Source of the DNA: Diphasiastrum complanatum
Lineage: Eukaryota; Streptophyta; Lycopodiopsida; Lycopodiales; Lycopodiaceae
Assembly: GCA_029204225.1 (NCBI GenBank)
Contig: CM055092.1
Location: 79,308,527 to 79,372,526, forward strand
DNA length: 64,000 bases
Direction: 5' to 3'
Numbering within the stretch: the stretch's first letter is position 1; every line of letters begins with the position of its first letter. The position numbers and the translations under genes were made by a program. The notes beneath the pieces were generated by a model. It was not told the DNA's origin. It saw only the letters and a list, made by a program, of their open reading frames with translations, and ran no database searches. Positions 14,825-62,000 of the stretch are shown one piece after another.

Positions 14825-15345
14825 GAAATCTCAAAACCTACAAAGTGTTTCTTACAACTATCACTCAACAGTTGTAAGAACAACTCCTCAGAGAGCCAAA
14901 AACCGGGAAACATCAGCAATCAATGGAATGGTGGATCAATCTCCAAGTCTTGCACATCTACCTAGTGCTAACACAAATGAAAATCCTACAAAGTGCTTGT
15001 TACAAATGTCACTCAACAGTTGTAAGAAGAACTCCTTAGGGAGCCAATAACTAAGAAGCAACTAAACTGAGTAGAATGATGGATCAGCCTCCAAGCCCTG
15101 CACATCTACCTGATACTAATCCCAAACCAATCATTAAAAGAGAAATGAACAACAACAAACACATTCATACATCAATACCCAAACTATATGCATGAAGATG
15201 GAGCATGGAAAGAAATGCAAGTCGTAGTCTTAAGCAACAACATTTCAGTACATAACAGCAATTGCCTACGTAAAACCAAGAACTTAATAATTGATATCGT
15301 CGCACTTCTCGACAACACTTCAAAGTCACAACAGATTATCAAGAT
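14825..15345. repeat. Dispersed repeat, copy 1 (related to 18228-18860)
   Basis: The block ACTCAACAGTTGTAAGAA, the ACTCC..AG(A)GAGCC block, TGATGGATCAGCCTCCAAG and GCAATTGCCTACGTAAAACC occur here and again at 18228-18860 in the same order. Within this copy the first part is itself duplicated (14830-14950 and 14995-15110). The right end, read on the minus strand, overlaps the methyltransferase-like coding remnant found at the second copy. Confidence 0.8.
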
Positions 15346-17080: not shown

Positions 17081-17194
17081 AAAGTAGGTCCGAAAAAAAT
17101 ATGGGTAAAAGAAAAATGACAATGGCTCGAACAATTATAAGGGACCGCAAAAATTATACCAAAAAAATTATAAGGTATCGAAAATATAACTGAT

Positions 17195-18220
17195 CAAAAA
17201 AATTAGGGATTGAATAAAACTAGAATTGAAAAATAAAACTCGAAAAATGAACTCAAAAAATAAAACTTGAAAAAGGAACTCGAAAAATGAAATTCGAAAC
17301 GAGAAATTTGAAAAATAAAACTTGAAAAATAAAAACTTGAAAAATGAGAACTCGAAAAAGAGAACTCGAAAAACTAAAATTCAAAAACTAAATTCGAAAG
17401 ATCAGGGCTCGAAAAATCTATTATTGAAAAATAATATATGAAAAAAATCTAGACTCGAAAAAGTAATGGATCAAAAAATTAATGACCCGAAAAATAGAGG
17501 CTTGAAAAAACAAGGGCTGGAAAAAATCGAGGATCAAAAATTTGATAAGTATCAAAAAAATAATGTCTCGAAAAATTATTGGATCGAAAAAATCTAGGCT
17601 CGAAAAAATCTTTGATCGAAAAACTACAAAATATCAATAAAGTAACAATGACTCAAAAAAAACTTGGAAAAAATTGAGTCGATACAGTATTGAAAAAAAT
17701 CTAATTTTAGATATTGAAAAATTTCGGATTGTTCGAGCCGATACAGTATCTGAAAATTCTAGAAAACATCGAGTCGCGTATCGAAAGTCTCGAGTATGGA
17801 AAAAAAAGTCAAGGGACTGAAAAATGTCAAGTATCGAAAAAACCATAAGGTATCGGAAAAACCGAAAAAACTGAAAAAAAAACTTGAAAAACTCAAAAAA
17901 CTGAAAAACTCAAAAATAACTCGCAAATTGAGAAAATTTGATAAATGCGAAAAACAACCCGAAAAAATTCGAAAATCTTAAAAACACGAAAAACTCGAAA
18001 TTATGAGAAAGTCGAAAAAAAATCTCAGAAACAAGGTCATTCCCCAGACTATAGTCAAATGTTTTTTTTAAACAAGGTATCAATTGTGAGGATAGAAACA
18101 CGTCTTGCTCACTAGGACTCGGCTCACTCGAAAAACTTGAAAAACGTGAAAAAAAAACTCGGAAAAACCTGAAAAACTCAAAAAATTCTGACAAATTAGA
18201 GTAGAGTATCGAAAAATTGA
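17195..18220. repeat. Degenerate short-period array built on CTCGAAAAAnnn
   Basis: Dozens of units of about 10-14 bp of the form (A)CTCGAAAAA(T/C), TTGAAAAAT and TCGAAAAAA follow each other for about 1 kb, broken once near 18025-18115 by unrelated sequence. Low complexity makes any ORF here unreliable. Confidence 0.75.
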
Positions 18221-18227
18221 AAAGTAG

Positions 18228-18860
18228 GACCAATTTGCAAGTCCCGCACATCTACCTGATGCTAACACAAATGGGGATCCTACAAAGTGCACGTGCTGTT
18301 ACAACTGTCACTCAACAGTTGTAAGAAGAACTCCTTAGGGAGCCGAAACTAAGATGCATCTGAACTGAGTAGAATGATGGATCAGCCTCCAAGCCCTGTA
18401 CATCTACCTGATACTAATCCCAAACCAATCCTCAAAAGAGAAATGAATAACAACAAACACATTCATACATGAGTACCCAAATTATATCCACATTCATACA
18501 TCAGTACCCAAGTTGAGATAGTCTAAATTGCTAGCTCCCACATGGCTATCCATCTTTCGGGAATTACCATGGGGCTCACAATTGTACATTTTAGTCTAGC
18601 ACTAATAGTTATCGTGCTCTCAGACTCGACTCTCAACTTCCTCTCTGTTGGAAACCCTTTTTGGGTGATGAGACACTGTATTGACACGTCAAGGGCATGA
18701 CATCAGCTAACATTATCCTCCCCCTATAGTGTTGCAGGTCCCATTGCAATGCCTCAGCTTACACGCTTGATTCTTGGAAAGGCATGGATCAGCAATTGCC
18801 TACGTAAAACCAAGAACTTATTGGTTGATATTGTCGTGCTTCTCGACAACACTTTAAAGT
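18228..18860. repeat. Dispersed repeat, copy 2 (related to 14825-15345)
   Basis: Same block order as copy 1, with an extra segment of about 300 bp (18490-18780) before the GCAATTGCCTACGTAAAACC block. Copy 2 runs directly into the ParB/methyltransferase-like pseudogene on the minus strand, so copy 1 is best seen as a detached duplicate of the downstream part of that locus. Confidence 0.75.
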
Positions 18861-21374
18861 ACAACCTTTTTCATCTTAGTATATTTAAAAGAGTGATCAT
18901 CATTCAACAAGCCCACCAGTTTAAAGTCATAAAGAATGTCTGCGATGCAAAGAGTGTACGGTTTTCTTTTCACAAACTTCATGATTTCTCTTGCATCGCC
19001 TTGTTGAAATGTATAAGAATAAGGCGGATCATCAACAGACTTCAGGACAAATGTCTCCTTTGGATCATCGTCAATGCTTGAGTCTCGAGCATGTTGACTC
19101 TCCCTTCATCTCCTCACAGCTTTTGCCTTTTGAAAATGGGTCTTAAATTGCTCAGAAAGTTGTCCACTCTGCTTATCTTCAGAACTCTGTGAAATATAGA
19201 AAAATGGAATATATTTAAATGCACTTATATTTAGCATGGTTACAACATTTCAAAATCTTAAAATCAATAACTCATGTGAGAATCTTATGTTGAGCATGGC
19301 TAAAGTAGTTGGAAAAAATGTTTATAAAAATATCTGTAAAGATAAATACTCATGCTCAACATAAACAGCTCTTTTACAATCTGAAAGGTAAGCATACCAT
19401 ATCTCTAAACAAAATAAAAAATCTTTGAAGCTCCTCGTCCTTGGAGCTGTTTGGGTACAAAGCTTGGCATTCTACCCAATCTTGACAATTGAGGCTCTTG
19501 ACCATGGCCTCTTGCACTTTCATGAAAAAAAATGATATTTTTAGTTCATCAATTATATAGTGACTGAAATTAGAAGAGATATAAAATTAAAAATTATTTT
19601 TGAAATTCTTTTCCCATTTTTGCAAGGTTGAGTTGTCCATCTACCACTCTTGAAAGACCGCTCACAACGACATCATGGGACATGTTCTTCCACTTAGATA
19701 TTTCCATATCATGGGGGATGTAAACAAGTGCCGATTGAGTTGTTTTTTTCTCTGTATAGGACACCACTTTTGAAATTTTGTCTTTTAATTTCAAACTTAT
19801 CTCACTTATCAAAATTTTGTCCACAAAATCCCAAATTTGAAACCAAAATTATTATGTAAATATCAAACAATGAAAAATTGGGAAGAATTCAATTAATAGA
19901 TTCAGAGAGAATTAAAACTTTTGAAAATCACATGGCCAGTACAGAAGGCCAACTGAAAAAAATTATCATATTCTATCAAGGAGTAGGTTGGATTCTTCTC
20001 ATCAAAAGAAAGTCCAGTCTTTTGTGCGTAGAGACACTTTAGCTGAATGTTTGTTGTGTCGTCCTCTTTGTGGAGTCTAAAATACTCCTTATAAAATTAT
20101 CTGACTCTTTGAATTACAGTCATCTTGAGTCTGTAGTCCTTATCAATGTTGTGGTCCCAAGCAAGGAGCTTGGCCTCCTCAACACTCAAGCCAACAAAAA
20201 CTATTGCACTAACTAGCCTAAATGATAATACATGGGGATGTTCTACAAACAACTCTTTTCTAGCTTGTAAACTATGGATCCTGCCTAAAACAAAAAAAAT
20301 TATAAGAATCAATTGGTTTTACATCAAAATCTACTATTGTGGGGCAGATAGCAGGATCAACGAGAACAATAAAAGACATTACTATAGCTTGAGTGTGGTC
20401 TTTAAATTTTATTTTTAAGTTATGTACATGGGAGCTTTTCGGCTCCCTAACCTCCATAGGCCTATTGCCAGTGTATGGGTCAATGGGTGGCCTCTCACAT
20501 TGTTCAATGTCTAAAATAAATGTCATTTCTTGAACTTTCTTGTTTTCATGAATTAGTGTTCACATTTTTGCAACATCTCTGCTGGCTGCATCAAGCTTAA
20601 TGGTGGCCCCGGGTAGATTCAGATTACTTGAAGGAGGAGTGGATATTTTTTTTTTAAAATTTTGGACCAATGCCTTTGGGAGTCATGGTTTTAAATTTTC
20701 TAACTTTGTGTACTGGAGAGACAGAATCATCAATAGATACAATCTCCAAGAAGGTATGTTTTATCTTTGGGAACGAGAGTAGTGATGTATCTTTGGAGGA
20801 GTCAAGGGGTTGGAAATCCTTTTGTGAGGAGAAGGGCAAGCTCTTGGGAGAGGACGTTGATCTTACAGACTTTGGCAAAACATGATCCTCTTTCGCAAGT
20901 GCCTCAACAACGATCAAAATTGAAGCTTTTCAAGGTCTAAAAAAAGTACAACAATGACAATGCTTTAGGTAAACCCATGCCCATCATAAAGATGAACAAG
21001 ATTACTAAACATAATCTGAGTGAAAGCAAAGAAATAACTTACAATGGTCTTCAAAGCTTCATAAAAAGTTTTTCACTATCGCATAAGCACGAAGGCGTAT
21101 CTTCATGAATCCATTTTCCACAATATACAAATAGACTTTTTTGTCAATGGCTTTTATGGAGATGTTTGTAAAGCCTACGTCATTATTAGCCACCGTCACT
21201 TTGTGAAGCACATGACCTTGTGCTACAAAAGTAGACGACCCTTTGTCAACAGTCTCTGTTGTCTAGAGAAAAAGTTCTGTGAGTTTCCATCCATCGTAAC
21301 CCTTTGTAAAACAAAACATATGGTTCGTCATGTCAACTTTTTGAAGATTTGCTGGATTAATTGGTGGACGAACT
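18770..21374 (-). pseudogene. Degenerate multi-exon gene: ParB-like domain plus DNA-methyltransferase-like domain
   Basis: Coding-like blocks follow one another on the minus strand. Block a (21374-21043; MTNHMFCFTKGYDGW, FVAQGHVLHKVTV, MKIRLRAYAIVKNF) ends at GTAAGT. Block b (from 20936) includes LDIEQCERPPIDPYTGNRPM and IVLVDPA. Block c (20284 to about 19950) carries GRIHSLQARKELF, IVFVGLSVEEAKLLAWDHN and TVIQRVR, which resembles the GxHR..A..EL to helix pattern of ParB-like proteins. Blocks d and e (about 19850-19594 and 19540-19399) are Lys-rich. Block f (about 19190-18860) carries FQQGDAREIMKFV then LCIADILYDF, like the GD..EI...ADPPYG core of N6/N4 DNA methyltransferases with P to L and G to D. 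Stops: TAG 21263-21265, TGA 21059-21061, a TGA near 20555, a TAA near 20092; a poly-A frameshift near 20650. Domain names are pattern recognition only. Exon limits are approximate. Confidence 0.45.
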
Positions 21375-21607
21375 CTAATTTGAACGATGTTGAAAAGATA
21401 TGAAAACCAACAAGTAGGAATATTAACAATGATAGAAGATGCAAACACAAAATATATGCTCAACATAGGTCTAGCACAAAGTTTAATGGACACATGCATG
21501 ATGATTTGGAAATTTCTAGTTAGAACTAGTACACTTGTTAAAAGTTGGTAGAATTTCATGCATGACAAGTGACAAATGTCACATAGACTCTAGATGTCAC
21601 TTTAGAT

Positions 21608-23004: not shown

Positions 23005-23327
23005 CCTGAAACTTGATAGTATTGAATGCTAATGATCAAATAGTGTTTTGATTCATTGAAGCAACTCATTTAAAATCATTAGATCAGATCTATGAGGCTG
23101 ATTTGTTCAGATCTTAAGTGTGTGTGAAATATCAGTCAAAATTGTACTAGAATCAATATTTTGGAAGAGTGACTTGCTAGGATATTTGAAGTAGATCTAT
23201 TATACCATCATCCAAGTTGAACTAGGTTGATTGGGTTGAGATTAGAGGCTTCTTGGAAAGCTAGAAATCTATCTTAGATCACTCATTATCAAGAAATCTT
23301 TGTGCATCTTATAGGCTTTCATTCACA

Positions 23328-24700
23328 ATGTCATCCATGGGTGGATATTTGTTAGAATCTAGTGAGAAGCTAACTAACACAAACTATTCCATTTGGAAAG
23401 TGAGGATGGAATCTCTACTTGTGATCCACGATCTCTTTGATATTATTTTAGGAGTTGAGGCGGAGTCCCAAGCTGTCCAAGAACAATTGAAATACAAGAG
23501 GAGGGCTAGATTAGCATTACCTTGCTTAAAGTTGAATGTAAGAAATGACCTCTTGAAGGAGGTGGCTTCTTGTGCCTCATCAAAAGAGGCCTGTGATTCA
23601 CTAAAGAACATTTATGAATCCAATAACACTTCAAGAGTGCTTATGCTAAGAAACTTGATCTTGCAAAGCATGAGGGGAAGTGGAGAAAATGGACAAGAAT
23701 ATGTCCTAAGGATAAAATCTTTGAGCAAAGTATTGGGATCTATAGGAGAGAAGATCCAAGACAATGAGCTAGTACAAGTAATTATAAATGGATTAGGAGA
23801 TGAGTTCTCTAATTTAGTTCAATCTTTTTCTACTCAAGACCAACTTCCATCAACTGATAAATTGCATAATGTTCTTGTGGCCGAGGAGAGTAGGCTTCTA
23901 CACCTCAAAACAAGAATGGGGTCCTTGTCACTACATAATGGTGATGAGAAAGCAAACTTCACATCAAAAGGCAAAAAGAAGACTCATCCTTTAAAGAAGT
24001 TCCAAGGCAAGGAGGCCGAGGCAAAGGATGGAGGATCTACCTCCAAAGGGAAGCAAAAGAACAAAGCCAAGCTTAAGTGTTTCTTTTGTGGGAAAAAAGG
24101 ACACTTTGCTTCTGAATGTTATAAGAAGAAGAATGCACAAGGGAATGAAGATGAAGGCAACCTTGCACAAGGGGAGGAGGAAGATGATGGCTTCAACACA
24201 TCCTTGATGGTAGCATCTACACCAAGATCAAGCCAAGAGACATGGTGGATTGATATTGGGGCTAGTTCCCACATGTCATTCAACAAGCATTATTTTTCTA
24301 CTCTACTTTCTTGTAATGATTCTAAGAAGTCAATCTACACTGCTAGTGATCAAGAATGTAAGATAGATGGCATAGGATCTATTCCATTATGCTTAGGATC
24401 ATCTAAGAGCATAGATCTTGATAATGTTTGTATGTTCCATCCATTACAAAAAAATTTGCTTAGTGTTGGTCAATTAATGGACAATGGACTAGATGTACAT
24501 TTTAGGAATGGAGTGTGTTCCATCTTGAAAAGTAACAAGTGCATAGCTAGTGGCATTAAGCAAGAAAGGCTCTTTAAGTTGGATGCTAATGTGGCTATTG
24601 AAAGTGTGAATATGGTTAGGGAGGAGTTGACTCAATGGATCTTTGGCACAAAAGATTAGGCCATCCTAATCTTCAATCAATGGAATCCATGGCATCAAAG
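23328..24700 (+). mobile_element. Copia gag-protease (truncated element)
   Basis: A 443-codon ORF (23328-24659) opens with GGYLLESSEKLTNTNYSIW, the usual Copia gag start, and runs through a UBN2-type gag domain to a zinc knuckle CFFCGKKGHFASEC (C-x2-C-x4-H-x4-C) near 24080. The protease core reads WWIDIGASSHM: the catalytic Asp (24252-24254) is kept, but the following Ser is Ile. The frame then shifts near 24630, where LWHKRLGHPNLQSMESM begins the pre-integrase domain, and all of it ends at 24700 against a minus-strand LTR. Integrase, reverse transcriptase and RNase H are absent. Confidence 0.85.
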
Positions 24701-25315: not shown

Positions 25316-27548
25316 CTCCTTACTAAAAATGTATCTAATGTGGATCAAGCATCGATCTTGAGATAAGACCAAGATTAGATCTATGCTTTGAGAAGGCACT
25401 TTTGCAAAGTGGCTTTGTGAGAAGATCAGCAATACATGAAGATGTGTCAACATGTTCCAAGCTGATTTCACCTCCAATGAGCTTTTCCCTTACAAAATGG
25501 TGTGCCACTTCTATATGCTTGCTTCTTGCATAAAAAATAGGATTGTTTGCAAGAGCTTGGGCCAATATGTTGTCACATTTGATCAAGGGAAGATCATCCT
25601 CTTTGATGCACTTTAGCTCCATGATTAACCTCTTCATCCAAAGCACCTCTTTAGTTGTTGTAGTGAGTGCTTTGTACATGGCCTCACAAGAAGATAGAGA
25701 TATGGTATCTTGCTTCTTTGAAAGCCAAGACACAAGATTGCCTCCAAGAAAGATAGTATATGCATTAATGGACTTTCGATCCATTTTATCACTTGCAAAA
25801 TCGGAATCCGAATAGCCAACAATGGTTAATCTTCATTCTTGTACAATAAACCATAATCTTGAGTAGAAGATACATATCTTAGAACTCTCTTGGCCATCTT
25901 CCAATGTTGGATCTTAGGATCTTGCATAAATTGACTCAATTTGTGCACACAATAGCTCAAATCGGATCTAGTGATAGTAAGCCAAATTAAAGAGCCTATA
26001 AGTAAAGTGTGATGTCCTCAAAGGATCTTTCATCACCTTTAATAGGATCTTTTACATGTTGCTCCATGGGAGTATCTATGCCTTCACAATTTTGCATATT
26101 GAATTTTCTCAACATAGAAAAGACATATCTAAATTGACAAATAAAAGCATACTCTTCATGAAAATCAATCTCAAGGCCTAAAATGTAATGGATCTCTCCT
26201 AGATCTTGCATTTTAAATTCTCTTCCTAATGCATCTTTAGTTTCTTGAACTAGCATCAAACAACTTCCACTAAGAATAATGTCATCTACATAGATTAGAA
26301 GAATGACAATATTACTACCATCAAACTTTAAGTACATAGGAGGATCATAGTCACTAAGCACAAATCTTAATGAAAGTAGAAAGTTGTTGAGTCTTGAATA
26401 CCATGATCTAGGTGCTTGCTTCAAGCCATAAAGACTTCTAAATAGAAAACACACCTTAGATTTATCCTTGACAAATCCTTGAGGCTGCTCCATGTATATC
26501 TCCTCCTCAAGATAGTCATTCAAAAATGCGTTGGAGACATCAAGTTGAAATAGTTTCCACTTAAAAAATAAGGCAAGAGAGATAATGATTCTTATTGTCA
26601 CCATCTTTGCTATAGGAGCAAAGTTTTCTTCATAGTCAAGGCCATATATTTGTGCAAAGCCTTTAGCACATAATCTTGCCTTGTACTTGTTGATGGAGCC
26701 ATCATGATTGTACTTGATCTTGAACACCCACTTGCATCCAATGATATGCATGTTAGGTGGTGGATCCATTAGCTCCCATGTGTGGTTGGTGATCAAGGCA
26801 TCATATTCAATCTTCATGGCCTCATACCACTCCTTGGTATTGAGGGCTTCTTGGACATCTTTGGGCTCCTCGTGAGAAACAAGATAAGCATAACTGGAAT
26901 CAAGATCCACTTGTTTTCCTTTGTCATCATAAGTGAGCCTCTTAGGCTTGGATCTCTCCCTCATGGATCTTCTAGGAGTCAAAATCCCAGGACTTCCATC
27001 TTCAAATTTTGACTCTTCCATATGTTGATTGTCTTCAATAACAAAAGGTGATACATTTTGAGGTTGCTTGATCTCGGCCCCTCCAAGATTGGACTTCTCT
27101 TCTTCATGAAAAACTACATCTCTACTATCAATTACTTTAGAAGTAGAGAGCATGTAGATTCGATAGGCTTTCTTGTTGGATGAATATCCAACCAATACTC
27201 CTTTGCTTGCACAAGGATCATCCTTCTTCTCATTTCCAAGGGAATATGGACAAAGCATATGCATCCAAATACTCTAAGGTGATCAGCCTTAGGTTTCTTC
27301 AAATAAAATGCTTCATATGGTGACTTTCCTCCAAGTTCAACATGAGGGAGTCGATTGCACAGATAGTTTGAACAATTGATGGCCTCACCCCAAAAGTCTT
27401 TTGGCAAAAATGCCTCAATTCTAATGGTTTTGGCACATTCACACAATGTTCTATTCTTTCTTTCAGCCACCCCATTTTGAGATGGTGTATATGCACAAGA
27501 AAACTCCCTTTTAATGCCTTCAAGCTCACAACCCAATATCCATGTCAA
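25316..27548 (-). mobile_element. Copia pol: integrase C-terminus, reverse transcriptase, RNase H (broken)
   Basis: Minus strand: integrase part from 27548 (EGIKREFSCAYTPSQNGVAE with the last catalytic Glu, then HLRVFGC), a frameshift near 27260, a 422-codon frame (27264-25996) with the RT domain (GCKWVFKIKYN, QLDVSNAFLN, SLYGLKQAPRSWY, YVDD at 26281-26292), a break near 25996-25820, then RNase H (KKQDTISLSSCEAMYKAL, HFVREKL) ending near 25335. The first two integrase catalytic Asp motifs, protease and gag are missing upstream of 27548. It forms one family with the fragment at 35795-36697. Confidence 0.9.
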
Positions 27549-28515: not shown

Positions 28516-31500
28516 GGGCATTTCAATAATCTGCATTTCTACTGTGGATTATTAGTTTTGTTTCTACCAAGACGTCTTTCTAGCAAACGCGCAGCCAATA
28601 GTATTCCAACAATCGTTGTTTCTACCAACGATCTAGTCCAACCAGAATGGATCCGTCATCTAGTTCATCTCTCATTGACAAACTCGATAGAGATAACTAC
28701 CATACCTGGAAATTCAAGATGAAGGTTATACTTCTAGCCAAAGAACTGTGAGACATCGTTGATGGCACATAGCTCAAACCAGAAAGTGATGCAGCCATCA
28801 TCACCAAGTGGAGACTGAGAGATGGCAAAGCATTTGCCATGATCACCCTCAATATCAAGGACACTCAAATCAGCCACATACGTGCTACTCAGATCGCTAA
28901 GGATGCATGGGACATCCTAGCAACTCTCTATGACATTAGAGACGTTACATCCAAGCTCCATCTGAGGAAGAAATTCTTCAACCTCAAAATGTCTGAAGCA
29001 TATAGTGTTTTGAGTCACCTCAACACTTTCAAAAATCTTATGGAGCAGATGACTGCAACTAGCTCAGTTATAGAAGATTCTGATGCACTCATGACTCTAT
29101 TATCGTGTCTACCTAAAACCTACGAAAATTGGGTAATGGCAATTTCTACCCAGGAGCACCTCACTCTATCAAGAGTAATTTCGTTGCTCCTACAAGAGGA
29201 GATCAGAAGATCAGTATCCTCTTCAGGCTCAGGATCGGATCCTCAAGCTCTGTATTCAAAAAATCAGAGTTTAGATCCAAGAGATCTATAAAGTCAGGCT
29301 ATACTGATAAGAAGAGCAACATGTAGTTTGGACCAAATTCTGGTCCAGGATCGAATTCAAGCTCTTCATCATTCTAACATGTGCAGAAACTATTCTGCAG
29401 ATACTGTAAGAGCACTGGCCACGAAATCAAGAACTGCCAAACTTTGAAGTATAACAACAAAAAGAAGAAGCAGTTCCAACAACAAGCACATAGTGCTACA
29501 ACCAGTCACTCAAATCAGTAGCAAGAAGAAGAGGAAGATGAAGCATCTTTCATGACCAAAGTTGGAGAACAACAGGACATCGATTCTTGGTATCTAAACT
29601 CCGGAGCAACTCAACACATGACTCACCATCGCGACTAGTTCAAAGACTACAAGTCATTCACCCACTCTCGAGTTGTGCAACTTGGAGACAACTCATCACA
29701 TTCAATCAAAGGTGAAGAAACAATCAGAGATGAATTCAAGAGAGGTGAGGTCAAGTCCAACGTTCTCCATGTTCCAAATATGACCAAGAATCTGCTCTCA
29801 ATTAGCAGAATCACCGATTCAGGTCGGAGGGTCGAATTCGATACAAAAGGTTGCACAATCCTTGACAAATACCGGAAGGTTCTAGCCTACGGAAGAAGAA
29901 GCGGCTATCTTTACAAACTCAGCCACTGCTACTCTTCTAACAGTCAAGCTCTTCACACAACCACTTCTGAATCAACTAATATGTTGTGGCATTTCAGACT
30001 TGGCCATCTTAACTACAACAGTATTCAGCAAATGTCAGTTCAAAGTCTGGTACAAGATCTGCCTTCAGTCAGCAAGCCAACTTCTCCATGCGAAAGATGT
30101 ATTATCAGCAAGCATGCTAGAAGTCCTTTCAGTTTAGGCTCAGTTCATACGCCCAAGGGCTTGCTTGACCTTGTACACAGCGACATTTGTGGTCTGATGC
30201 AGACTGCTTCCACAGGGGGAGTTCTCTATTTTCTAACCTTCATTGACGACTTCTCTCGAAGGACTGCTACCTACAATATGAAGAACAAATCTAAAGCATT
30301 CAAGTTCTTCAAGCAGTTCAAAGCTTCTGCAGAAAACCAGACCCAGAGGAAGATCAAGGGTCTACGCACAGATGGAGGGGGAGAGTACATCTTCACAAAA
30401 TTCAAGAAGTTCTACAAGGCCAACGAGATACTTCAACAATACACAACCAACTACTCACCTTAGTCCAATGGTGTAGCTGAGCGGAAGAGCCAGACACTCA
30501 TCGAAAGTGCCAAGAGCATGATGGCCCATGCCTCTCTTCCAAAGAAGTTCTGGATAGAAGCTGTTACTATAGCTGCCTACTTGCAAAATCGATCCATCAC
30601 CAAAGCCCTAAATGGCAAGACACCTTATGAGGTGTAGACAGGATCAAAACCATTACTCAAACATATTCGAGTGTTTGGATGCATCGCTTTCGCTCAGATC
30701 TCTGAGGATCTAAGAAGAAATATAGATGACAAGAGCGAAAAAATGATCTTCATCGGCTATTTCCCAGACCACAAGGCATACAAGCTCTACAATTTGAATA
30801 CCGAGAAGACATTCACCAGTAGAGACATCATTTTTGTGGAAGACCAGTTCATCGACCACAAAGGAAAAGCTGCTGATAAATCTGACTCCGGGATCGAGCA
30901 ACTAGTCAATTTTGATCCAGAGATTCAACTGTAGAATCTCGACGCTGACTTAGACGATGAGTCAGAACCTCAACGAGTTAACCCACATCAAAGGATCAAG
31001 GTTCAACCTAGAAGTTTGAACAGGTCCAAATAGCCTCCATCCAGATTTATGGATGATCCGGCCTGCAACTTTGTGTGGGAACCGACCATAGTTTCTGAGG
31101 CGATGTCTACTCCTGATGCTAACCAGTGGAAATCAGTGATGGACACCGAATTTAATTCTTTGTTGGAAAATCAAACATGGACACTCACTGAGCTACCAAA
31201 AGACCGAAACCCAATTCCATGCAAATGGATATTCAAGGCGAAGTACGACGTTGAAGGAAGCTAAATCGCTACAAGGCCAGGCTAGTCGCCAAAGGCTTTT
31301 TCCAGATACCAGATCTAGATTATTTAAAAACCTTCAGTCCAGTCGTCAAACATGTTTCGATCCGTCTACTCCTCTCCTTTGGAGCTACAGCAGATCTTGA
31401 AGTCCATCGGATGGATGTCCAGACCGCTTTCCTCAATGGAACCATCGAAGATGAAATCTATATGACACAGCAAGAGGGATACGAACTCAATGGCAAACAA

Positions 31501-32639
31501 CAGCACCTTGTATGCAGAATTCACAAGGTGCTCTATGGGCTGAAACAGTCACCCAGATCCTGGTTTCAAAATATCAATGCATTTCTAATTGAGAATGGTT
31601 TTATTCCAAACTTAGCAGACTTGAATGTTTACTTCAAGTCTGTATCAGAATACTTCATCATCATCACTCTCTATGTTGACGATACACTCTTATTTAGTAA
31701 TAATTTGAATTTGAATCTAATGAAGGATACAAAATGCATGCTGGCCCAGGAATACAAGATGACTGACATGGGTCCAGACCACTATTGTCTCGGAATCCAA
31801 ATTCAACGAGATCGACCTAGTAGACTGACCTTTATCAGTCAACAACGATATCTCAACAACGTGCTGGAAAAGTATGGAATGGCCAACTGTAAACCCAATC
31901 TCTTTCCACTTGACCCTAGACTAAAGCTATCAAAGGAACAGTCTCCTCAAACTGAGGTAGAAAAGGAGAAAATGAAGCACTACCCATTTCAATCCATCAT
32001 CGGCTCACTAATGTACGCAATGATCTGCACGCGACCAGACCTTGCATATTCGATCAGTACACTCAGCTAGTTCTTGTCAAATCCAGACGTAGTTCATTGG
32101 AAAGTGCTATTAAAGGTCATGAAGTACATCCAAGCAACAAATACTCTCAGCACCTACACAGATGCGGATTGGGCAAGAGATGTCGACACCAAAAAATCAA
32201 CTTCTAGATTTGTATTTTTATACAACCAAGGCCCAATTTCATGGAACAACCAGAAGCAAACCTTAGTTGCATTATCATCAACAAAATCCGAATACATAGC
32301 TACCACAAATGCAACCAAAGAGGCAATCTGACTAAGACAACTTCTCGCAGACCTGAACCTTGCACAACCGCTTCCTACAACAATCTATTGTAACAATCAA
32401 AGCACAATAGCACTTTCTCTCAATCCGAGATTTCACTCTTGAAGCAAACATATAGAAATCAAGTATCATTACCTTAGAGAGAAAGTGCACAACAAGGAAG
32501 TAGAACTGGTTTTCTACAGAACAAACTACATGGCAGCAGATTACTTCACAAAGGCTCTATCAAAGGAGCAACATCTCAGATTTAACAATATGTTAAATCT
32601 GATTATAAAAGTTTTTCATGATCCTCATTAAGGGGGGAG
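28504..32639 (+). mobile_element. Internal region of Copia element 1 (near-complete, dead)
   Basis: Domains in order: gag from ATG 28647, zinc-knuckle region near 29395-29440, protease LNSGATQHM near 29597 (catalytic Asp is Asn), pre-integrase MLWHFRLGHLNYNSIQQMS, integrase with SDICG, LRTDGGGEY and NGVAERKS, RT with MDVQTAFLNG, YGLKQSPRSWF and YVDD (31672-31683), RNase H with ADWA and KSEYIA, and a polypurine tract ending GGGGGGAG at 32639. Stops break every domain: TGA 28749, a TAG near 28770, TAG 29323, TAA near 29373, TAG near 29518, 29635, 30462, 30637, 31032 and 32068, and TGAs near 32329 and 32440, plus a frameshift near 31262. Most are C-to-T or G-to-A. Internal length 4.1 kb is normal for Copia. 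Confidence 0.92.
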
Positions 32640-48177: not shown

Positions 48178-50371
48178 ATGCTGGGTTTTGAAAAAAAGAT
48201 TTTGAGGGCAGAAGAGTGCAAAGGTTTGATGGGAAAGGAAGCAAATCAAACCCACATTTATCAGCATGTTTTGGAGTATGATAGATTAGTGCGATCGGAA
48301 GTGATGCGTGGGTGTCAGCAAGTCCGAGAAATGGAGCATAGATTGAAGCTTGCAGATCCGGGCTGTTTGGGCTTCAGTGACAGCAGCAGCAGCAATGTCA
48401 AGGCACTGCGTGCAAATCTAATGGGTTCTGCAGCGGCAATTGTGTCCAATTTTAGCAATGTCATCACCTTCCTCAATGCCAATCCATTTGCTGCTCAGCA
48501 GATGTCGCAAGGGGTCGGCATTTCTTTTGGAATAGAAAGCATGAATGTAACCGCAACAATTGGCAAAGGCGAGCAGGCTGAGATGCACTTCAATGCAGAA
48601 GAAAAGAAAATCTGTACAGAGGGAACAAATCTTTCCTGTCAGAATGTGGAAAGCCCTATTTCAACAGCTAGAACTGCAGAAGCTCGTTCTCCTTCGCCCT
48701 CTCCCTTGCTTGTTGGCAGCAAACGCTCCCCCCAACGGAGGTATGGCGCTTTGACTGATCGCGCTTTGACTGATCCCACAATGTCATTGAGTCTAGAAGG
48801 AGAGACACCAGCAGATGAAATTATGCGTGGGAGTGGAGGAAACGATCAGGCCGACAGTTCTCAAATCAAGCAGACTTCGGCTGCAAAGAAAAGGTAACCG
48901 TTTGGCATTGTGTTTGTGTGCTTTTTTCCATTCTGCAGCGGCAGCATCAGAACCCATCTCCACAATCAATCTGGAAATGAAAGATTGCTTGAAAATTCTG
49001 GCTGACGTATTAGGATCAAAGGTGAAGTTGTGTAATTACTCGCTTCTTTACGTTTTGCAGGAAGTTCATGCCAAAGTGGACATTCAAGGTGCCTATTGAC
49101 AGCGCAGAGAATGGGAACGAGATGCCTCCGGCTGATGGCTTCAACTGGCGCAAGTATGGGCAGAAAGACATACTTGGATCACGCTATCCCAGGTATTTTT
49201 CTTCTCTTGTCAACAAGCTAGTTTTGGATGTTGATGAAATCTGATCAAATTAATGCTGGCGGCTTTCCTCAAGTTAATTTTGGAGCTTGATCAAGCTTGG
49301 TGTGCTCTCTGTAATAATACGCTGAGATCTCCCTCTATTTGCAGAAGCTACTATAGATGCACCAACAAGACAGAATTTGGCTGCCCCGCTATCAAATATG
49401 TGCAGAGGTTAGATGAAGATCCTCCTGTTTTTAATGTAACTCTCAAAGGGGAACATACTTGTCCAGCTTCAAGGAATCATTGCCCTTCACTATCCTACTT
49501 CTACCCTGCACTGGCCACTGATTGTCTGCAGAGGGCAATTTTCCCTGCTGATGCCAACTTTCTGACAAGGAGCAGTATCGATAGCTTTACAAATCCCTCT
49601 TCTGCACCTGATATGAAGGTTCCTAGTATCTCACCTCCTTTAAGTGCTTTTAAGTCAGGATTTGACAGACATGGAAACCCAGTTTTCAAATCATCTTCAA
49701 TTCTGTCACCTAATATTGTCACGCCAAGGTTTGGCTTCAATCCCTATTCCGTACAATCAAGCCAAGCTGGTGTTTCAAATCAGAATGAAGATTTTGGATT
49801 AAGCCTGCTTGATTCAGGACCAGATATTCTTAGTGGGTTATTTTCTGCCCATCAGTGCAATGGAAACAGCTCCATTCAAGCTGCCGATGAAATCAAGGGT
49901 AATCTGAAGCAAAAGTATGGGTGTAAAGCTGAAGCCACAGAGTTACCTGAATGCATATCTGCTCCAAGCATGTCTGGAATGCGAACTTTGAATGAAATCT
50001 TAGACTTTGAAGACATCTGCTTTCATTTTCCCCATCCAAAAGGTTCCACTTTAAACTCGTTTGCTAAGGAAGCAGAAGCTGAAACCTCTAGAGAACTCCA
50101 GTCTCCAGCAACCTCTTCAGTGGTCTCAAACTCGTTGCTATCAAGCACACTGCACTCCACCATCTCAAGTGTGTCATTGAGCCACAGCACGGCCCAACCT
50201 AATGTTCCCACACCAGAGTCAGAATTTTCAGAAGTTGTGGCTGAGCATACTCCAGCTTGTACATTCTCTCTGGGTTTTATGCTGGATAATGAAGGAGTTC
50301 AACAACATGTCTATGGTGTGGATTATGAACCTGTTTCCTTCACCAATTCATTACTATTTGGCTCAGAATAG
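48178..50371 (+). CDS. Group III WRKY transcription factor (three exons, intact)
   Basis: Exons 48178-48893, 49061-49192 and 49345-50371 (GT..AG introns, both phase 2) join into 624 codons. The N-terminal part (about 1-60) is helical and charged (EYDRLVRSEVMRGCQQVREM); a Ser/Pro-rich linker follows, then KKRKFMPKWTFKV ahead of the WRKY domain. The domain has WRKYGQK intact and a C-x7-C-x23-H-x-C zinc site, which defines group III. Intron 2 splits the Arg codon in YPR|SYYRC, the conserved R-type intron of this family. The C-terminal 280 residues are Ser-rich with acidic patches and may activate transcription. It should act in the nucleus on W-boxes (TTGACC/T); group III members serve defence and senescence responses in angiosperms. 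The start is the first ATG after two uORFs. An unspliced reading of each intron meets stops. Confidence 0.93.
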
Positions 50372-59141: not shown

Positions 59142-61687
59142 ATGGCACCTCTGGGAGGATATCTTCTAGAAGCAAATGAAAGACTAAATACTTCTAATTA
59201 CTCAATTTGGAAGTTCAGAATGGAGTCTATTTTGATACTCCAAGATGTTATGGATATTGTGCTTGGTGTTGAGGAGGAGCCTCAAGCACATACTGAAATT
59301 CTTAAGTATAGGAAAAGAGCTAGAATGGCTCTACATTTCATTAAGATTAATGTATCTAATGAAAATTTGAGAGAGATAGGATCTTGCACTACAGCCAAAG
59401 AAGCTTGGGATGCACTTAAGTCCATCTATGAAGCAAAGAATACTTCTAGAATACTCACTCTTAGGAATCAGATTTTCCAAAGTTTCCAAAGAAGTGATGA
59501 GAGTGCATCAAACTATGTTCTGAGAGTTGAAGATTTACATAGAGAGCTTTCCTGTGTTGGTGTCACTATTAACCAAGATGAGCTAGTTCAAGTCATTTTA
59601 AATGGCTTGAAAGATGACTATGATAATCTTGTTCAGTCTTTTGCCATTAAGGATGAGTTGCCTAATCTAGAAACTCTCCAAGGAATTCTTATTTTTGAAG
59701 AATCTAGACAAAGCTATAAACTTTTCAGGATGAACAAACTCGAGCATGGTGGAAGTGACAAAGCCCTCTTTGTCAAACACAAGCATAAAGGAAGAAGTAA
59801 GAACTAGTTCTCTCAAGCATCCGACAAAGACAAAGCCAAAGATCGAGACAAAGATGGTGAAGATGATGATTCATCTCATCCCTCTACTTCAAAGGCCAAC
59901 AAGAAGAAAGTGAAGTGTTTCTTGTGGCAAGAAGGGGCACTATGCCTCTAATTGCTTTAAGAAGAAAAACCAACTCAAGCAAGCTAATCTCTCCAAAGAT
60001 ATTGAAGAACATTATGTTGCAAGTGATGGAGAAGGATCACTTATGGTGTCCAGTTTTTCTCATCACCTTTCAAGAAAGATGGAGCTTGGTACATAAATAG
60101 TGGAGCTTCTTCACATATGTGCTGTTCAAAGGAGTCATTTGACTCAATTGTACCTTACAAAGGACTCAAGAGATCTATTTACACTGCTAATGATCATGAG
60201 TGCTCTATAGAAGGAATTGGCAACATTCCATTGAAACTTGCTTCTTCAAAAGTTCTCGCACTTTCTAATATTCTATTTATTCCAAAACTTACAAAGAACT
60301 TGATTAGTGTGGGAAAGTTGCTTGATAATGGTTGTGATGTAAAGTTCAACTCCAATACTTGCTTTATCAAGAAAAATGATGAGATCCTAGCTGATGGATC
60401 TAGATGTGGTGGAATTTTTGAGTTGAATTCTTATGAGAATGCAAATCTTTGTGAAGTTGCTTTGTTATCTAAGGAGGAGTTATGGCATAGAAGGTTGGGA
60501 CATCCTAACTTTAAATCTATGTCTTCTATGGTCAAGAAAGTGAAGGCTATTGGTCTTCCAAAATCTCTTTCCAAAGATTTCAAGCCTTGTGAGGCTTGTG
60601 CTATTGCAAAATCACATGAAAACCCATATCATAAGTCTTTTATCAAGACTACTCATCCTTTGGAGCTTATACACTCGGATGTACATTTTTCCTCTTCTAA
60701 AAGTATTGGTGGTGCAACATGTTTTGTCACCTTTATTGATGACTTTACTAGATATACTTGGTTGTATCTACTTTCTTCAAAAGCTATAGTATTTGATCAC
60801 TTCCTAATCTTCAAAGCTTATGTTGAGAAACAGTTTTCTTTCAAAGTTAAAGCTTTAAGATGTGATGGAGGAGGTGAATACATCTCCAACAAGTTTCATG
60901 AATATTGTGAAGTTGAAGGAATAAAGAGAGAGTTTTCTTGTGCTTATTCTCCATCTCAAAATGGAGTTCCTGAGAGGAAAAACAGATCTTTATGTGAATG
61001 TGCTAAAGCAATTCGAGTTGAAGCTTCTTTGCCTATTAAATATTGGGGTGAAGCTATAAATTGTGCAAACTATTTGGGCAATAGATTACCTCACAATGCA
61101 CTTGCTAGAAAATCACCTTTTGAAGTCTTGTTTGAGAGGAAACCTAAGGTAGATCACCTTAGAGTTTTTGGTTGTGCTTGTTTTGTTCATGTGCCCTTGG
61201 AAACAAGGAAAAGAGATGATCCTAATTCTATTAAAGGGATCATGGTTGGATATGCATCCAACAAGAAAGCTTACAGAATCTATGTTCCCTCTACCTCAAC
61301 TACAATTGAGAGTAGGGATGTTATATTCCATGAGGATCAAAAATACATTCTTGAGGAGGCTGAGATCAAAGATTCTCACAAAGATACTCCAATCATCACC
61401 CTTGAAGACTATCATGGAGACATGGGGCCGAGAATTGAGGAGGAGTCACCTCGAATCTTTTCACCAAGGAGATCTCAAAGAGAAAGATCCGAGCCTATGA
61501 GGCTTACTTATGAAAATAGAGGCAAGCAAGTGGAAATCAGCTCCACTAATTTTGCTTATTTTATTTCACATGAGGAGCCAAAGGATGTATATGCCGCACT
61601 TAACTCAAAGGAGTGGTACCTTGCCATGAAGGAGGAATATGATGCTTTGATGGCCAACAAGACATGGGAGCTTGTGGACCTTCCGTC
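59142..61687 (+). mobile_element. Copia gag, protease, integrase (3'-truncated)
   Basis: Gag ORF 59142-59807 (GGYLLEANERLNTSNYSIWK) ends at a TAG in place of a likely CAG; the frame continues to a zinc knuckle near 59917-59960 broken by a 2-base loss in its CFLCGKKGH motif. Protease reads INSGASSHM: the catalytic Asp is Asn (60096-60098). A 543-codon ORF (60117-61748) carries ELWHRRLGHPNFKS, the integrase with HSDV, RCDGGGEY and NGVPERKN (all three catalytic acids present) and HLRVFGC, then the RT start (EEPKDVYAALNSKEWY, ANKTWELVDLP). At 61687 it is cut by a reverse-oriented repeat, which supplies the last codons. RT, RNase H and 3' LTR are missing. A leader of about 750 bp separates primer site and gag. 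Confidence 0.9.
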
Positions 61688-62000
61688 AAAGAATAACTTC
61701 ATGCTGGAAAGAAGTCCGATGTCTAATATTCGAGAAATTACTAAGTAGTAAATGATTAATTAATAAAGCGAGAAATCGATCTGAGGGTCTCTTATTTTGT
61801 AAATAGTGAGATATTACATTGGGATCTAGATTAAACCTCAAAATTTTCCAAAATACCCCACATTTGATCAAACGGTTTTATTTTTTCCATATCACGACTA
61901 GGTAATAAAATACACCATTGATCATCAGATCTTTACAGTCCTAGAATTTTCTCTTCAAAATTACAAATATCCCATACCATCAGCTCTTCCTTCCAAAAAA
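61688..62000 (-). repeat. Reverse copy of the 39141-39441 repeat
   Basis: AAGAATAACTTCATGCTGG at the left end and CCCATACCATCAGC near the right end are the complement of the sequence from the end of the unknown ORF (39189) to just before the LTR-like copy 2. Divergence is moderate, with small indels. Sequence 62001-62389 is unassigned. Confidence 0.8.

What the first reader, a model, noticed from the sequence alone, without database searches (positions are those of the whole stretch)
18770..21374. A plant locus with a ParB-like domain joined to a DNA-methyltransferase-like domain
The minus strand carries spliced, protein-like blocks: one with GRIHSLQARKELF and IVFVGLSVEEAKLL (ParB-like layout) and, further on, FQQGDAREIMKFV...LCIADILYDF, which reads as a worn GD..EI...ADPPYG methyltransferase core (P to L and G to D are both C/G transitions). 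ParB-like plus methyltransferase is a combination known mainly from bacterial and phage genes; a spliced copy in a plant chromosome would be unusual and could mark a domesticated or transferred adenine-methylation system. The locus here is broken by stops and a frameshift, so an intact paralogue elsewhere would be the one of interest.
Basis: partly seen in the sequence, partly recalled or inferred. Interest (0 to 1): 0.8.

Follow-up and report, generated by a model that had tools for sequence, protein, structure and literature searches.

The report
Plant jumping gene carrying bacterial-type DNA methyltransferase
The spot is a dead, cut-off copy of a gene that a large plant transposon carries: the gene encodes a bacterial-type DNA methyltransferase with a possibly ParB-like front part, and it suggests that this jumping element may chemically mark DNA in its plant host.

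Summary
The blocks are real. Window 21388-18860 (minus) is a decayed copy of a spliced gene with at least 151 matches in the same 1.74-Gb plant genome. Better copies confirm the methyltransferase: motif IV ADIPYG, and a motif I exon (LDLFSGSGTT) hitting N6_N4_Mtase, PF01555, at 2.6e-11. The window copy reads ADILYDF and is cut at 18861, so its motif I half is missing. The ParB label is not proven: sequence, profile and AlphaFold tests failed or were inconclusive; only the motif layout fits. It does not look like a lone transferred or domesticated gene. In two end-to-end copies (9,108 and 8,794 bp, both with stops) it lies with a divergent DUF7869 gene between short inverted ends, with 4-bp target duplications; 816 left ends occur in the genome, 0 for a backward control. 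Between two subfamilies, differences are far rarer at amino-acid-changing than at silent sites. Best reading: a DNA transposon, DUF7869 probably its transposase, carrying a prokaryote-type amino-methyltransferase that may modify the element's own DNA. Activity is untested. No such element turned up in ten paper searches; Repbase was not available.

The parts
21038..21388 (-). Exon 1 remnant (MAQLKVRPP... in L009; here start codon lost, one stop, frame shift near the end); donor GT at 21042-21041
   Evidence: tblastn with L009 exon 1, 60% identity, E 9e-39; sequence
19920..20936 (-). Exon 2 remnant with the ParB-like stretch (IHSLQARKELF...GLSVEEAKLLAWDHN); acceptor AG at 20938-20937; frame shift between 20297 and 20287, a TAA stop further on
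   Evidence: tblastn with L011 exon, 74-78%, E 5e-84; frame continuous in L010, L016, L017
19597..19848 (-). Exon 3 remnant, limits approximate (KISKVVSYTEKKTTQSALVYIPHDM...)
   Evidence: DNA similarity to L004 over 20986-18861, 77%, and reading of L005
19398..19523 (-). Exon 4 remnant, 5' limit approximate (MKVQEAMVKSLNCQDWVE...FRDM); GTATGC follows it
   Evidence: same as above
18860..19186 (-). Exon 5 remnant with methyltransferase motif IV, ADILYDF (ADIPYGF in L005); one stop; acceptor AG at 19188-19187
   Evidence: tblastn with L005 exon, 71%, E 7e-45; sequence
18790..18865 (.). Another repeat that starts where the gene breaks off; second copy at 15256-15332 (90%)
   Evidence: self comparison; similarity to L004, L005 and L013 ends at 18861

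Best explanation
The locus is a dead, 3'-truncated copy of the second gene of a DNA transposon family in this plant. The full element (about 8.8-9.1 kb) has short imperfect inverted ends, makes 4-bp target duplications, and carries two divergent genes: a DUF7869 protein, probably its transposase, and a spliced protein with a ParB-like middle part and a permuted (motif IV before motif I) N6_N4-type DNA methyltransferase. Most likely mechanism: DUF7869 cuts and pastes the element; the second protein binds DNA and puts a methyl group on adenine N6 or cytosine N4 in or near the element, helping it to be expressed, moved or kept. Shown: two genes, ends, target duplications, copy number, methyltransferase family. 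Inferred: transposase role, ParB-like role, methyltransferase activity and its benefit to the element.
For: Copy number: 151 matches, 150 rows listed, 150 of 1740 candidates scored. Ends: similarity of X24, X28 and X17 begins within one base of the same place; right ends of X24, X28, L016 and L029 agree. 4-bp target duplications in 3 of 3 copies in which both ends were found among the 10 scanned: AACT (X24, 9,108 bp), TTCC (X28, 8,794 bp), TTTA (a 2.7-kb shortened copy in L029). Rejoining the X24 flanks with one AACT gives an in-frame reading like a Ty3-type integrase (integrase motif recalled). 816 left ends against 0 for the backward control. Of the first 100 left ends listed, 11 have a ParB-like hit 3.7-8.5 kb inward, each on the same strand, 0 outward (about 0.08 expected, some contig lengths estimated); 5 have DUF7869 1.3-1.9 kb inward, each on the opposite strand, 0 outward. 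Methyltransferase: PF01555 2.6e-11, PDB MboIIA 1.7e-5, hhalign to 86 phage and bacterial ParB-methyltransferases or relatives E 5e-8, 0 of 100 shuffles as good; the motif IV exon aligns ADIPYG on TDPPY, E 0.01, 1 of 100 as good. DUF7869: 1.3e-51 (blended query), 9.5e-53 on L036 read through its stops, 150 of 150 scored places over the cut-off. Selection: between subfamilies, median share of changed silent / replacement sites 0.84 / 0.23 for the ParB-like exon (40 pairs), 0.88 / 0.29 for the motif IV exon (5 of 6 pairs), 0.70 / 0.22 for the motif I exon (12 pairs), 0.84 / 0.15 for DUF7869 (2 pairs).
Against: The window copy belongs to a second subfamily whose ends I did not find; its link to DUF7869 rests on one divergent pair 11.6 kb apart (C4:15977459 / 15989055). 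Only 11 of 100 listed left ends have a listed ParB-like hit (both lists are truncated). Of 4 ParB-DUF7869 pairs within 12 kb on C1-C8, 3 are divergent and 1 is not. In L029 the ParB-like hit lies outside the shortened element whose ends I used. X24 and X28 carry stops in both genes or exons. ParB tests failed. DUF7869 has no sequence match in the PDB and is not named a transposase. Within subfamilies some dN/dS medians approach 1 (motif I exon 0.76 and 0.69, DUF7869 0.98 for one pair), as expected for dead copies but no support for function; only stop-free pieces were used, which biases the values down. The empty-site search did not complete.
Confidence: 0.72

Rival explanations
1. A plant gene of bacterial origin, captured by and amplified with an unrelated transposon as a passenger, with no role for the element (Pack-type capture).
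For: Most listed copies are decayed: 120 of the 150 rows listed, the window's own among them, have at least one stop inside the match, 30 have none. No RNA evidence.
Against: The gene in its full extent, from start to stop exon, sits in the same place and orientation in X24 and X28; both subfamilies keep it with few replacement changes although silent sites are saturated or nearly so.
Confidence: 0.15
2. A domesticated or horizontally transferred adenine-methylation gene of the host.
For: The methyltransferase is of a prokaryotic kind.
Against: At least 151 copies and an association with transposon ends. I did not look for a single conserved host copy by synteny or expression; no tool offered it.
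Confidence: 0.05
3. The middle domain is not ParB-like at all; the protein is an amino-methyltransferase with an unrelated domain.
For: PF02195 finds nothing in the genome; no ParB family among Pfam or NCBIfam hits of 15 copies (only weak unrelated ones, best 0.0057 and 0.018); 26 of 150 column shuffles score as well as the real profile; HMM scores lie within those of shuffles.
Against: With the whole exon, hhalign put GGIHSLQARK on the phage GHxRxxAAK box in its best alignment, and so it did with the trimmed core against the ParB part alone; but against the full profile the trimmed core went elsewhere. The predicted order of strands and helices fits loosely (low confidence).
Confidence: 0.4

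Closest known systems
Fungal DNA transposons that carry TET/JBP dioxygenases (PMC12730594, passages seen)
   Same: DNA transposons that carry a DNA-modification enzyme besides the transposase
   Different: There a dioxygenase acting on methylated bases; here an amino-methyltransferase and a DUF7869 gene
Retrotransposons with cytosine C5 methyltransferases in dinoflagellates and charophytes (PMC5890265, abstract and outline seen)
   Same: Mobile element carrying its own DNA methyltransferase
   Different: Retrotransposons and host-derived DNMT; here a DNA transposon and a prokaryote-type amino-methyltransferase
Bdelloid N4CMT (PMC8885841, passages seen)
   Same: PF01555 permuted methyltransferase of bacterial kind with introns in a eukaryote
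   Different: A host gene with a chromodomain; here a multicopy transposon gene in which Pfam found no such domain in the exons scanned
Phage and bacterial ParB-N6_N4 methyltransferase fusions (PMC12704722, passages and section 6 seen; loci L038-L046, L053-L132)
   Same: Order: candidate ParB stretch, motif IV, motif I
   Different: ParB box clear there (GHxRxxAAK), unproven here; one open frame there, introns here

Membership tests
N6_N4-type (beta, permuted) DNA methyltransferase, PF01555 | AdoMet-binding motif I and profile match over curated cut-off | tested here: met
   44.3 bits in L024 against cut-off 26.7; 35.5 bits in L022. The window copy lacks this exon.
N6_N4-type (beta, permuted) DNA methyltransferase, PF01555 | Catalytic motif IV ([DNS]PP[YFW]; pattern recalled), upstream of motif I | tested here: inconclusive
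   Several relatives read ADIPYG, so D-x-P-Y rather than DPPY; aligned to TDPPY by hhalign; Pfam did not cover this exon. Window copy ADILYDF.
N6_N4-type (beta, permuted) DNA methyltransferase, PF01555 | Methylates DNA | not testable with these tools
   -
ParB_N / ParB-CTPase fold (PF02195) | Profile match | tested here: not met
ParB_N / ParB-CTPase fold (PF02195) | P motif (Box II) arginine | tested here: inconclusive
   In the alignment the R of GHGR faces S of IHSLQ, so the arginine looks lost, but that alignment is not significant; passage names the arginine
ParB_N / ParB-CTPase fold (PF02195) | Fold | tested here: inconclusive
Cut-and-paste DNA transposon | Inverted ends and fixed-length target duplication | tested here: met
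   3 of 3 copies with both ends, 4 bp; inverted ends short and imperfect (11 bases)
Cut-and-paste DNA transposon | DDE-type transposase | tested here: inconclusive
   DUF7869 gene present; invariant acidic residues in DN..RENKN and GHTH...DQ in 6 sequences; no fold or activity test
CACTA/EnSpm-like (CMCT) clade | 5'-CA..TG-3' termini in most cases, 2-5 bp duplications (passage) | tested here: inconclusive
   Ends read AACA..TGTT, so CA..TG is not terminal; a 4-bp duplication would fit; transposase motifs not compared
Domesticated host gene | Low copy number | tested here: not met
   At least 151 matches

The most novel reading that the evidence does not exclude
A hitherto undescribed lineage of plant DNA transposons (DUF7869 transposase) that carries, and maintains by selection, a prokaryote-type amino-methyltransferase joined to a ParB-like module, and uses it to write 6mA or 4mC on its own DNA in a land plant.
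Probability: 0.35. Interest if true: 0.87.

Novelty: new variant of a known kind. Interest (0 to 1): 0.7.

Why it matters
The AMT1-6mA pathway is reported lost in plants (PMC12695648, passage), and whether any plant element writes amino-methyl marks is, as far as I know, open. A multicopy transposon with its own amino-methyltransferase makes that directly testable, gives DUF7869 a likely function, and adds another kind of DNA-modifying enzyme to those known to ride on mobile elements.

Tried and rejected
ParB homology by Pfam, PDB sequence, NCBIfam, PHROGs, own HMM with shuffles, and profile-profile comparison with 86 ParB-methyltransferases or relatives: none significant. PHROG hits (0.0018 and 0.0026, families of unknown function) were not repeated with better copies and are dropped. 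Relatives in viral contigs: none confirmed. Phages with the window block: no match. A 45-nt intron before GRIHSLQ, my first idea, was rejected when relatives showed a continuous frame. Literature: ten searches, of which I saw the listings; DUF7869 is in 0 papers; no listed title or abstract start describes a plant transposon with this gene; Iyer et al. 2016 is not held. A WRKY domain in the window supports a plant. dN/dS pairs dropped: 52 were saturated beyond the correction (40 ParB exon between subfamilies, 2 ParB exon within subfamily 2, 5 motif IV, 3 motif I and 2 DUF7869 between subfamilies), and 5 were too short.

Full report
What is at the locus. The minus strand from 21388 to 18860 carries remnants of five exons of one gene. 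Peptides from other copies match exon 1 (60%), the ParB-like exon (74-78%) and the motif IV exon (71%) with E-values of 9e-39, 5e-84 and 7e-45. The copy has lost its start codon and has stops and a frame shift. Similarity to L004, L005 and L013 stops at 18861 in each, where another repeat (18790-18865, second copy 15256-15332) begins, so the last exon with methyltransferase motif I is missing from the window.

Copies. The ParB-like block has 151 matches in the window's genome (1.74 Gb, 5176 contigs); 150 of 1740 candidates were scored, so the number is a lower bound; of the 150 rows listed 30 have no stop. I fetched 20 copies with flanks and 6 upstream stretches for 4 of them. Better copies read DSYHFFVLGGIHSLQARKQLSQEYP and GLTVEEAKLLAWDHNIDQDYRMKMT, TLCIADIPYGF, and LDLFSGSGTTSACAVQK. 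Two subfamilies appear, 63-67% identical in the ParB-like exon by comparison with L010; the window is nearer to the second.

Methyltransferase. The last exon of L024 matches N6_N4_Mtase at 2.6e-11, solved MboIIA at 1.7e-5, phage methyltransferase families at 4e-10, phage and plasmid DNA at best 4e-7 and 6e-6 among the rows listed. Profile comparison with 86 ParB-methyltransferases or relatives of phages and bacteria (7 of alignment A2, the rest from the 80 loci by a length filter) gives 5e-8 for the motif I exon (0 of 100 column shuffles as good) and places ADIPYG on TDPPY for the motif IV exon (E 0.01, 1 of 100). Motif IV precedes motif I, the permuted order.

ParB. The same kind of test for the ParB-like exon fails. 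Best alignments of the whole exon put GGIHSLQARK on the GHxRxxAAK box, but 26 of 150 column shuffles score as high for the trimmed core, and against the full profile that core is placed elsewhere. Scores from an HMM of ten ParB sequences lie among those of shuffles. PF02195 finds nothing in the genome. AlphaFold models have mean pLDDT 46 and 52. So ParB-like is a fair description of a motif layout, not a membership.

The carrier. X24 and X28 span 9,108 and 8,794 bp that begin with AACACRATGAC and end with GTCATCATGTT, flanked by AACT/AACT and TTCC/TTCC. A shortened copy of 2.7 kb in L029 has TTTA/TTTA; the ParB-like hit of L029 lies outside it. These are the 3 copies, of 10 scanned, in which I found both ends. 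Rejoined X24 flanks read through in frame like a Ty3-type integrase (motif recalled). The 31-base left end occurs 816 times with up to 3 mismatches, 0 for the backward control. Of the first 100 places listed, 11 have one of the 43 ParB-like hits listed on contigs C1-C8 3.7-8.5 kb inward on the same strand and 0 outward; 5 have one of 60 DUF7869 hits inward on the opposite strand and 0 outward; of 4 ParB-DUF7869 pairs within 12 kb, 3 are divergent and 1 is not. The window holds no such left end.

The neighbour gene. A divergent gene in the left half of the element belongs to DUF7869 (with a blended query; in X24 itself 2.9e-48 at C17:38164916; broken pieces in X28; 9.5e-53 for L036 read through its stops). 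The genome holds 150 scored places over the cut-off out of 2953 candidates. Invariant DN..RENKN and GHTH...DQ stretches in 6 sequences look like a DDE-type core, but this is inference; the PDB gives no sequence match.

Selection. On stop-free pieces, median dN/dS is 0.36 (45 pairs) and 0.10 (4 of 6 pairs) for the ParB-like exon within subfamilies 1 and 2, 0.45 and 0.31 for the motif IV exon (3 pairs and 1 pair), 0.76 and 0.69 for the motif I exon within subfamilies (3 pairs and 2 of 6 pairs), 0.17 between them (9 of 12 pairs), and 0.98 for one close DUF7869 pair. Other between-subfamily pairs are saturated at silent sites; their uncorrected shares of changed silent and replacement sites are 0.84 and 0.23 (ParB-like exon, 40 pairs), 0.88 and 0.29 (motif IV exon, 5 pairs) and 0.84 and 0.15 (DUF7869, 2 pairs). 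Choosing stop-free copies biases these values downward, and pairs are not independent.

How it may work. Shown: gene, family of its methyltransferase, element ends, duplications, copy number. Inferred: DUF7869 moves the element; the second protein methylates DNA; the benefit to the element. The aspartate in motif IV hints at adenine rather than cytosine (passage: DPPY for bacterial N6A enzymes), a weak hint.

Known relatives. Fungal transposons with TET/JBP enzymes (passages), retrotransposons with DNMTs (abstract) and the bdelloid N4CMT (passages) are the nearest in kind. I saw no plant DNA transposon with an amino-methyltransferase in the listings of ten paper searches, which cover open-licence papers only.

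Noticed in passing
window 49238-50371 +: WRKY domain (PF03106, E 3e-12): a probable host gene between the repeats.
   Followed up: partly
window 23265-24659, 25996-27273 (-), 29639-32070, 59142-61748: Copia-type gag-pol pieces; RVT_2 E 7.9e-68 at 25996-27273 and integrase parts at 60027-61748; the others by reading only.
   Followed up: partly
window 17130-18200: A/T-rich stretch with repeated units around AAAAACTCGAAAAA, starting some 660 bases beyond the broken gene end.
   Followed up: no
window 14933-15192 and 18227-18490; 15256-15332 and 18790-18865: Paired pieces of one repeat (89-90%) on both sides of that stretch, one of them meeting the break of the gene.
   Followed up: partly
L003 (contig C508): Copy of the ParB-like block identical to the window's over 122 residues on a small contig, perhaps the other haplotype.
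   Followed up: no
L047, L051, L052: A second DUF7869 group (DNCWRENKN or similar) only 26-28% identical to the group found with the methyltransferase; what it carries was not examined.
   Followed up: no
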